From: Pseudomonas spelaei
GTDB taxonomy: Bacteria > Pseudomonadota > Gammaproteobacteria > Pseudomonadales > Pseudomonadaceae
Length of the DNA: 64,000 nt
Assembly: GCF_009724245.1 (NCBI RefSeq)
Contig: NZ_WNNK01000007.1
Coordinates: forward strand, 186,001 to 250,000
Direction of reading: 5' to 3'
This document shows, piece by piece, positions 37,964-40,433 of the stretch (its first letter is position 1; the number at the start of each line of letters is the position of its first letter). The notes under the pieces are model-generated. The model was not told the DNA's origin and ran no database searches. It worked only from the letters and a program-made list of their open reading frames with translations. The position numbers were made by a program, and so were the translations under genes.

Positions 37964-38746
37964 TTAAGCGACGTGCGCCAAGGGGAACAGGCGCTTGAAG
38001 TTTTCGGTGGTCTGCTCGGCAAACCGCTCGTAGGACTCGCCCCGCAACATCGCCAGGTAGTCCGCCACATCCCGCACATATTGCGGCAGGTTCGGCTTGC
38101 CACGGTGCGGAATCGGCGCCAGATACGGCGAATCGGTCTCCACCAGCAGACGGTCCGCCGGGACTTGGCGAGCCACATCACGCAACGCATCCGCATTACG
38201 GAAGGTGACGATGCCCGACAGGGAGATGTAAAAGCCCAGGTCCAGAGCGGCCTTGGCCATGTCCCAGTCCTCGGTGAAGCAGTGCAACACGCCCGCCTGG
38301 GGCAGCGCGGCTTCGCGCAGCAGGGCCAAGGTGTCGGCACGGGCGCCACGGGTGTGGACGATCACCGGTTTGCCGGTTTGCCGGGCGGCTTGCAGGTGCA
38401 GACGGAACGATGCCTGTTGGAGCTCGGCGGCTTCCGGCTCGTAGTGATAATCCAGGCCGGTCTCGCCTATGGCTACCACTCGTGGATGATTGAGCTCGCC
38501 CAGCAGCCAATCCAGGGCCGGCGCTTCACCGGGCTTGAGGTCCAGGGGATGAATGCCCACCGAACAATCGACATCGGCGTAACGCTCGGCCAGGGCTTTG
38601 ACGTCGGCGGCATTTTCGGCGCTGACGCCGATACACAGGAAGTGCCCTACCCCGCGCTGACGCGCAGCCTCAAGGGCGGCATCCAGGGAGCCGCCGTGTT
38701 CGGCGAGGTCGAGGCGATCGAGGTGGCAATGGGAGTCTACGAGCAT
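37964..38746 (-). CDS. TatD family metal-dependent hydrolase
   Basis: The 260-residue protein has the metal ligands HCHLD at the N-terminus (VDSHCHLDRLD), GETGLDYH (catalytic Glu-Asp), HTRG near 132, HCFTE near 155 and the late ETDSPYL. It belongs to the YcfH/TatD group of DNases (3'-5' exonuclease or D-aminoacyl-tRNA deacylase activities have been shown for relatives). It follows holB by 63 bases with no pilZ between. Weak SD. Confidence 0.94.
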   Translation of the reverse strand: MLVDSHCHLDRLDLAEHGGSLDAALEAARQRGVGHFLCIGVSAENAADVKALAERYADVDCSVGIHPLDLKPGEAPALDWLLGELNHPRVVAIGETGLDYHYEPEAAELQQASFRLHLQAARQTGKPVIVHTRGARADTLALLREAALPQAGVLHCFTEDWDMAKAALDLGFYISLSGIVTFRNADALRDVARQVPADRLLVETDSPYLAPIPHRGKPNLPQYVRDVADYLAMLRGESYERFAEQTTENFKRLFPLAHVA

Positions 38747-38809
38747 AGGAAATTACAACTTGAGTCACAGGAAGTGTCTGGCCAACGATACACCTGTCGG
38801 CCACTGAAA

Positions 38810-40433
<1,624 letters not shown>

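What the first reader, a model, noticed from the sequence alone, without database searches (positions are those of the whole stretch)
38747..38809. pilZ missing between holB and tatD
In the pseudomonads I recall, pilZ (type IV pilus assembly) sits between holB and tatD. Here only 63 bases lie there, with no remnant of a PilZ frame. This suggests a clean loss, or relocation, in this lineage and possible loss of type IV pilus function.
Basis: partly seen in the sequence, partly recalled or inferred. Interest (0 to 1): 0.5.

Follow-up and report, generated by a model that had tools for sequence, protein, structure and literature searches.

The report
Pilus motor gene pair lost together
The small pilus gene pilZ is truly gone from between two housekeeping genes in this Pseudomonas, and it left together with the pilus motor gene pilB, while a slimmed-down remainder of the pilus machine has been kept by selection and probably does another job.

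Summary
Confirmed: 63 bases separate holB and tatD, with no detectable pilZ remnant. It is a loss, not a relocation: 41 of 59 sampled genus genomes have pilZ there; the other 18, this one included, have none anywhere. The trees need at least three losses; two genomes carry pilZ fossils at the site.

PilZ goes with PilB: of 298 genomes 167 have both, 126 neither, 5 one alone. The tip protein PilY1 is found in exactly the 41 pilZ-bearing genomes.

'Loss of type IV pilus function' is half right. This genome keeps PilA, C, D, T and PilMNOPQ, remodelled: PilM lost its second half, PilQ its AMIN domains. In its clade pilM-Q and pilA, C, D are under purifying selection. Best reading: twitching pili were given up and a reduced machine, laid out like E. 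coli HofMNOPQ, was kept, perhaps driven by an orphan TfpB-like ATPase matched in 59 of 59 genomes. Ellison et al. 2021 noted a pilB-less, tfpB-bearing P. fluorescens; the pilZ link and parallel trimming I did not find in print.

The parts
38747..38809 (-). holB-tatD intergenic junction, the site where pilZ is found in pilZ-bearing relatives; 63 bp, no detectable remnant
38810..39799 (-). holB (DNA polymerase III delta' subunit); the GTG start at 39799 is inferred by inspection
   Evidence: (DNA_pol3_delta2, E 2.9e-45)
37964..38746 (-). tatD (TatD-family DNase), 260 aa
   Evidence: TatD_DNase, E 5.1e-83
39792..40424 (-). tmk (thymidylate kinase), upstream neighbour, overlaps the inferred holB start
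   Evidence: Thymidylate_kin, E 1.6e-50

Best explanation
pilZ was deleted from an ancestral holB-pilZ-tatD arrangement because its client was lost. PilZ is reported to be a small stabiliser of the N-terminal domain of the pilus extension ATPase PilB; in this lineage pilB was excised from between pilA and pilC, and the tip protein PilY1 is gone too. What is left is a reduced, still selected type IVa-pilus-like machine: pilin PilA, platform PilC, peptidase PilD, a PilT, and PilMNOPQ with a half-size PilM and a secretin PilQ without AMIN domains. Shown: the absences, the retained genes, purifying selection on pilA, C, D and pilM-Q in the own clade, and repeated loss. Inferred: canonical twitching pili are no longer made; PilM keeps the half that binds PilN; the remainder makes a short pseudopilus for DNA uptake or secretion, as proposed for E. 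coli HofMNOPQ; and the orphan TfpB-like ATPase supplies the extension motor (about 0.4).
For: pilZ in 41 of 59, always in the order holB-pilZ-tatD; in the 18 others no T4P PilZ match with E<=0.001 anywhere. PilB over cut-off in 40 of 59: 40 of 41 pilZ-bearing (the exception, G034, has a pilB split by a frameshift) and 0 of 18 pilZ-less. PilB/PilZ in 298 genomes (which include the 59): 167 both, 126 neither, 1 PilB alone, 4 PilZ alone. PilY1: 41 of 41 and 0 of 18. From the pilin's N-terminal motif to pilC is 212-275 bp in 6 group-A genomes and G021, against 1971-2029 bp in 5 pilB-bearing genomes, i.e. pilB excised. At least three losses; fossils in G021 and G128. PilQ is recognised only from reference residue 268-279 on in the 17 pilZ-less genomes other than G021; AMIN lost in the own PilQ. 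Median dN/dS: PilM 0.24, N 0.18, O 0.31, P 0.21, Q 0.13 in 9 group-A genomes; PilA 0.11, C 0.14, D 0.16 in 6; no internal stops in the aligned parts. In 15 of 16 named reduced loci each of pilM-Q aligns as one frame without stops. PilN keeps an NLLPWR/NLMPWR motif in 18 of 18 pilZ-less genomes. PilM' model matches P. aeruginosa PilM:PilN1-12 (5eou_B) with Z 17.3, rmsd 3.0, 180 aligned. Orphan ATPase match in 59 of 59; catalytic motifs kept in 21 of 21 examined. PilZ binds the PilB N1 domain: PMC11656802 passages.
Against: G177 (complete) keeps an intact pilZ without a recognised pilB; G080 and G223 do too but are 86% and 73% complete; G240 (77% complete) has pilB without pilZ. The Fisher p-values ignore shared ancestry. 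Support for group A as one clade is weak (88, 78, 52 in the trees), so losses could be more than three; the place of G021 differs between trees. Selection shows that the products matter, not that they form one machine, and rates are several-fold above aroB/aroK. In group B pilO is not recognised in 5 of 8 and pilP in 1 of 8 genomes, no pilin with the class III motif lies within 3.5 kb upstream of pilC in 7 of 7 examined, and the PilT frame holds a stop in G024 and G025 and no PilT-family match passes the cut-off in G009. PilM of P. kitaguniensis (L211) is split over two frames. No expression or phenotype data.
Confidence: 0.78

Rival explanations
1. Type IV pili are simply lost and the remaining pil genes are decaying leftovers.
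For: PilB, PilZ and PilY1 are gone; pilM-Q evolve faster than aroB/aroK; PilM and PilQ are truncated; in group B pilO is often unrecognisable and PilT carries stops in two genomes; L211 has a split pilM. Passages of PMC6713353 report that P. fluorescens C7R12 does not twitch, though its clade was not tested here.
Against: No internal stops in 9 of 9 group-A genomes for pilM, N, O, P, Q and in 6 of 6 for pilA, C, D, with dN/dS of 0.11-0.31. PilQ is trimmed at nearly the same place in groups A and B, and sizes are two-state: 16 reduced against 64 full-size among the 80 loci kept. PilN keeps the NLLPWR-type motif.
Confidence: 0.1
2. The reduced machine still extends a pilus, with the TfpB-like orphan ATPase as sole extension motor and PilT as retraction motor; PilZ is dispensable because TfpB does not need it.
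For: Orphan ATPase match in 59 of 59 genomes, catalytic motifs kept in 21 of 21 and dN/dS 0.13 in group A. Ellison et al. 2021 show that TfpB drives part of extension in Acinetobacter baylyi and noted that P. fluorescens A506 has T4P parts and tfpB but no pilB (PMC8213720). PilT-family match over cut-off in 58 of 59.
Against: The ATPase occurs equally in genomes with PilB, so its presence is not specific, and in group B it evolves faster (dN/dS 0.27). Orthology to A. baylyi TfpB was not tested. Of seven PilB-model matches in this genome only the three listed were looked at. G009 lacks a PilT over the cut-off; G024 and G025 have a stop in theirs. PilY1, needed for normal pili in P. aeruginosa (recalled), is missing.
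Confidence: 0.4
3. pilZ moved elsewhere in the genome.
For: None; the PilZ domain family has six members here.
Against: A profile of T4P PilZ finds nothing at E<=1 in this genome although it finds all 6 positive controls at E<=2e-73.
Confidence: 0.02
4. pilZ was never here; pilZ-bearing relatives gained it by insertion.
For: Counts of changes on an unrooted tree cannot tell gain from loss; the root used here is the midpoint.
Against: Bearers lie on all sides of the loser groups in the trees; pilZ is at the same site in all 41 bearers; G021 and G128 hold 3' pilZ fossils of 41 bp and about 130 bp at the site, 0 of 300 shuffles each.
Confidence: 0.02

Closest known systems
Type IVa pilus machinery as in Pseudomonas aeruginosa (PilABCD, PilMNOPQ, PilT, PilZ, PilY1)
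   Same: Same gene families and neighbourhoods as in pilZ-bearing relatives: ponA-pilMNOPQ-aroK and pilA-pilC-pilD-coaE; the PilM' model matches solved P. aeruginosa PilM.
   Different: No PilB, PilZ or PilY1; PilM half-size, PilQ without AMIN domains.
HofMNOPQ of Escherichia coli (DNA utilisation proteins as annotated in MG1655)
   Same: Reduced pilMNOPQ-type operon between the penicillin-binding-protein gene and aroK; short secretin aligned without the N-terminal region, and a short PilM-like first gene (HofM 259 aa, HofQ 412 aa; own 221 and 464).
   Different: The trimming arose within Pseudomonas, nested among full-size relatives. E. coli keeps a PilB homologue HofB (recalled, not tested).
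TfpB, second extension motor of Acinetobacter baylyi (Ellison et al. 2021, PMC8213720)
   Same: Orphan PilB-like ATPase away from pilC; the paper already noted P. fluorescens A506 with T4P parts, tfpB and no pilB.
   Different: A. baylyi also has PilB. The main text does not mention PilZ (0 occurrences). Orthology was not tested here.
PilB-PilZ(-FimX) complex of Xanthomonas citri and P. aeruginosa
   Same: Explains why pilZ and pilB would be lost together: PilZ binds the PilB N1 domain (PMC11656802, passages).
   Different: Here both partners are absent.

Membership tests
Canonical type IVa pilus system | Extension ATPase PilB beside pilC | tested here: not met
   No match over the PilB cut-off in G000; pilin motif 275 bp from pilC with no pilB between
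Canonical type IVa pilus system | PilM, N, O, P alignment complex and PilQ secretin | tested here: met
   All five Pfam families present, but PilM matches only 1-169 of 340 and PilQ lacks AMIN
Canonical type IVa pilus system | Major pilin with class III signal, PilC and PilD | tested here: met
   Pilin and N_methyl, T2SSF; prepilin peptidase domain
Canonical type IVa pilus system | PilY1 tip protein | tested here: not met
   PF05567: no match in G000; present in all 41 pilZ-bearing genomes
Canonical type IVa pilus system | PilZ | tested here: not met
Canonical type IVa pilus system | Retraction ATPase PilT | tested here: met
   G000:C1:131871-132887, 493.6 bits, cut-off 319.1
Canonical type IVa pilus system | Twitching motility / visible pili | not testable with these tools
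   needs a strain
HofMNOPQ-type reduced operon | Five-gene operon between the PBP1A gene and aroK with a short secretin lacking AMIN | tested here: met
HofMNOPQ-type reduced operon | Function in DNA uptake/utilisation | not testable with these tools
   needs mutants
TfpB extension motor | PilB-like ATPase not linked to pilC | tested here: met
   L134:7434-9188 (minus), MshEN and T2SSE domains; neighbours read by eye show no pil genes
TfpB extension motor | Phylogenetic placement with A. baylyi TfpB | not tested
   no named Acinetobacter sequence was fetched

The most novel reading that the evidence does not exclude
Pseudomonads have repeatedly (at least three times) turned a type IVa pilus into a minimal, PilB-, PilZ- and PilY1-free machine powered by a TfpB-type ATPase, with a PilM that no longer has a full actin-like ATP-binding fold and an AMIN-less secretin: a Hof-like uptake or secretion device evolved in parallel to the one in enterobacteria.
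Probability: 0.35. Interest if true: 0.75.

Novelty: new variant of a known kind. Interest (0 to 1): 0.55.

Why it matters
It makes two open questions testable by genetics in soil bacteria: whether a TfpB-type ATPase can be the only extension motor of a type IV filament (raised, untested, by Ellison et al. 2021), and what PilZ is for (if it serves only PilB, the two should disappear together, as they do in 293 of 298 genomes). It is also a natural experiment on which parts of PilM and PilQ are needed only for a long, force-bearing pilus: in this genome's clade the second half of PilM and the AMIN region of PilQ are what goes.

Tried and rejected
Relocation of pilZ: rejected. Absence as an assembly gap: rejected, since the junction is contiguous in single-contig pilZ-less genomes as well, e.g. 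G003, G015, G017, G032. One single loss: one clade of all 18 rejected (p-AU 9e-12), groups A+B as one clade rejected (p-AU 0.0088; groups were named after seeing a tree); G021 and G128 as one event not rejected (p-AU 0.11), and with G080 added deep nodes weaken to 53-64. A plasmid copy of the region: no match. pilZ remnants in the other long-standing losers: none clear, though G003 (3 of 300 shuffles), G017 (14), G025 (21) and G057 (25) are marginal. A first AlphaFold2 model of the short PilM from 9 sequences was useless (pLDDT 39.6); the second from 50 sequences has pLDDT 71, with residues 1-13, 172-188 and 200-221 under 50, so its C-terminal part is not trusted. Two type II secretion-cluster ATPases of this genome were considered as replacement motors and set aside because of their gsp-type neighbours (read by eye); four weaker PilB-model matches of this genome were not listed and not looked at. 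G045 is not in the ATPase set of 21; one search reports one TGA in the G007 ATPase match, which the alignments do not show. FimX, minor pilins other than PilY1, competence genes and natural transformation were not tested. Papers: PMC8213720 passages and section 7; PMC11656802, PMC4672498, PMC6713353, PMC7545093 passages only; all others search listings only. Searches whose listings showed no paper on linked pilZ/pilB loss or truncated PilM/PilQ in Pseudomonas: (open-licence library only; most hits not opened). PMC4672498 does report P. fluorescens strains missing one to seven T4P genes, one of them lacking pilB among others.

Full report
Observation. On the minus strand the order is tmk, holB, tatD. 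holB stops at 38810 and tatD starts at 38746, leaving 63 bases. No stretch of them resembles pilZ beyond shuffles (102 of 300 shuffles do as well). The window lies in G000, contig C77, 186001-250000.

Loss, not relocation. A BLAST of the holB-tatD stretch over 59 genomes of the genus gave one uninterrupted match in 18 and two matches separated by an extra stretch in 41. In all 41 the T4P PilZ gene lies in the order holB-pilZ-tatD. A profile of this PilZ finds nothing with E<=0.001 in any of the 18 (best 0.38), while 6 of 6 positive controls score E<=2e-73. The tree of holB+tatD puts the 18 in three places: group A (9, with this genome), group B (8) and G021 alone, each among pilZ bearers; parsimony gives 3 changes and a single clade is rejected (p-AU 9e-12). 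A five-gene tree of 43 of the 59 genomes also gives three places, although group A has support of only 52 there and G021 sits beside other relatives. All are midpoint-rooted. G021 still carries 41 bp of the 3' end of pilZ and G128 (outside the 59) about 130 bp (0 of 300 shuffles each): the gene was deleted in place, and in this genome's lineage long enough ago to leave no trace.

PilB and PilY1 went too. PilB exceeds the curated cut-off in 40 of 59 genomes: 40 of the 41 with pilZ and none of the 18 without. The one exception, G034, has a pilB split by a frameshift, probably an assembly error since its pilC and PilY1 are split as well. In 298 genomes, which contain the 59, PilB is found in 168 and PilZ in 171: 167 both, 126 neither, one PilB alone (G240, 77% complete) and four PilZ alone (G080 86% complete, G223 73% complete, G177, and G128 with only the fossil). 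Genomes are not independent observations; the weight rests on the three or four separate losses. PilY1 is found in exactly the 41 genomes with pilZ. From the pilin's N-terminal motif to pilC is 212-275 bp in 6 group-A genomes and G021, against 1971-2029 bp in 5 pilB-bearing ones, so pilB was excised cleanly.

What stayed. A PilD-type peptidase domain is in 59 of 59, a PilT-family ATPase over the cut-off in 58 of 59, though with a stop inside in G024 and G025, and PilC in all 13 group-A/B genomes examined and in G021. In the ponA-pilMNOPQ-aroK locus pilM, pilN and pilQ are recognised in 18 of 18 pilZ-less genomes; pilO is not recognised in 5 and pilP not in 1, all of group B. In 17 of 18 PilQ is recognised only from reference residue 268-279 on; the 464-residue PilQ of this genome has STN, Secretin_N and Secretin domains but no AMIN, where the reference PilQ has two. 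In group A PilM is recognised over about its first 180 residues, in some with a short C-terminal piece (221 aa here); in group B open frames of 306-431 codons remain, but the profile recognises mostly the first half, and two genomes align full length at only 26-28% identity. G021, the recent loser, still has full-size genes. Of the 80 best named loci kept (of at least 581 candidates) with the short PilM as query, 16 have the short PilM and PilQ (P. yamanorum, grimontii, costantinii twice, poae, edaphica, canadensis, proteolytica, kitaguniensis, fluorescens and others) and 64 have full-size ones, without intermediates.

Selection. In 9 group-A genomes pilM, N, O, P and Q have no internal stops in the aligned parts and median pairwise dN/dS of 0.24, 0.18, 0.31, 0.21 and 0.13; pilA, pilC and pilD in 6 genomes 0.11, 0.14, 0.16; controls aroB 0.04, aroK 0.03, nadC 0.05 (5 genomes), coaE 0.10. 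Constraint is weaker than for the controls but clearly purifying. Among the 16 named reduced loci, 15 have each of pilM-Q aligned as one stop-free frame; in L211 pilM is split over two frames. PilN keeps an NLLPWR/NLMPWR motif at its start in 18 of 18 pilZ-less genomes (14 with a strict pattern; 4 with a looser one). The model of the short PilM (50-sequence alignment, pLDDT 71) matches P. aeruginosa PilM bound to PilN1-12 (5eou_B, Z 17.3, rmsd 3.0, 180 residues). From memory of the PilM-PilN structures, PilN's N-terminus binds in the first domain of PilM, so the retained half should be the PilN-binding one; I did not compute the contacts. What is gone in the own PilM includes the FtsA-like second half.

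Mechanism. PilZ is reported to bind the N1 domain of PilB and improve its solubility, and pilZ mutants of three species lack pili (review PMC11656802, passages). A PilZ without PilB has no client, so joint loss is expected; G177 and G128 hint that pilB goes first, but two cases prove little. What remains lacks its canonical extension motor. Of the seven matches to the PilB model in this genome three were listed: two sit among type II secretion genes and one is an orphan of 585 residues; the four weaker ones were not seen. The orphan has a match in 59 of 59 genomes; its Walker A, GEIRD (Walker B) and paired-cysteine motifs are kept in 21 of 21 genomes examined, with a one-residue gap in the first cysteine pair of G015. 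Ellison et al. showed that A. baylyi uses such a second motor, TfpB, and remarked that P. fluorescens A506 has T4P parts and tfpB but no pilB (PMC8213720). I give 0.4 to this ATPase driving the reduced machine. By layout the reduced operon resembles E. coli hofMNOPQ, annotated as DNA utilisation proteins, which suggests DNA uptake or secretion as its job; that step is inference.

Novelty. That some P. fluorescens strains lack T4P genes, pilB among them, is in print (PMC4672498, PMC8213720), as is variation in AMIN number among T4aP secretins (PMC7545093). I did not find the joint loss of pilZ, pilB and PilY1, its repetition, or the parallel trimming of PilM and PilQ in the listings. I file it as a new variant of a known kind.

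Noticed in passing
L279 (G128:C1 around 5115691-5115804): A fossil of pilZ (last 37 codons) between holB and tatD in a genome without a recognised pilB: an intermediate stage of the deletion.
   Followed up: yes
L115:4793-6223 (G000:C97): A gene resembling an O-antigen ligase / pilin glycosyltransferase (TfpO-like, by eye) sits next to pilA; homologues at the same place in G031, G048 and G052, in G052 split over two alignments.
   Followed up: partly
L117-L120, L127, L128, L195: In 7 of 7 group-B genomes examined no class III pilin motif lies within 3.5 kb upstream of pilC, unlike in group A; where their pilin is remains unknown.
   Followed up: no
G024:C62:187469-188476 and G025:C21:29721-30707: The PilT-family gene holds one TAG stop in two group-B genomes, which may mean that retraction is being lost there.
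   Followed up: no
L125, G034: pilB, pilC and PilY1 are all split in this single-contig genome; probably indel errors of the assembly rather than biology.
   Followed up: partly
L211: The short pilM of P. kitaguniensis MAFF 212408 is split over two frames.
   Followed up: partly
L201 and L202: Two contigs of the P. costantinii LMG 22119 record both carry the ponA-pilM-aroK locus; possible duplicated or mixed assembly.
   Followed up: no
L207: A record named P. syringae PA-4-7F carries the reduced P. fluorescens-type pilM-Q locus; probably misnamed.
   Followed up: no
G023:C1:5509083-5510819: The orphan TfpB-like ATPase of this pilZ-bearing genome is only 60% identical to the one here, while most pilZ-bearing genomes have 73-76%.
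   Followed up: no
L132 and L133 (G000:C33): Two type II secretion-like clusters lie on one contig, the second beside two similar DING/PstS-like protein genes (named by eye).
   Followed up: no
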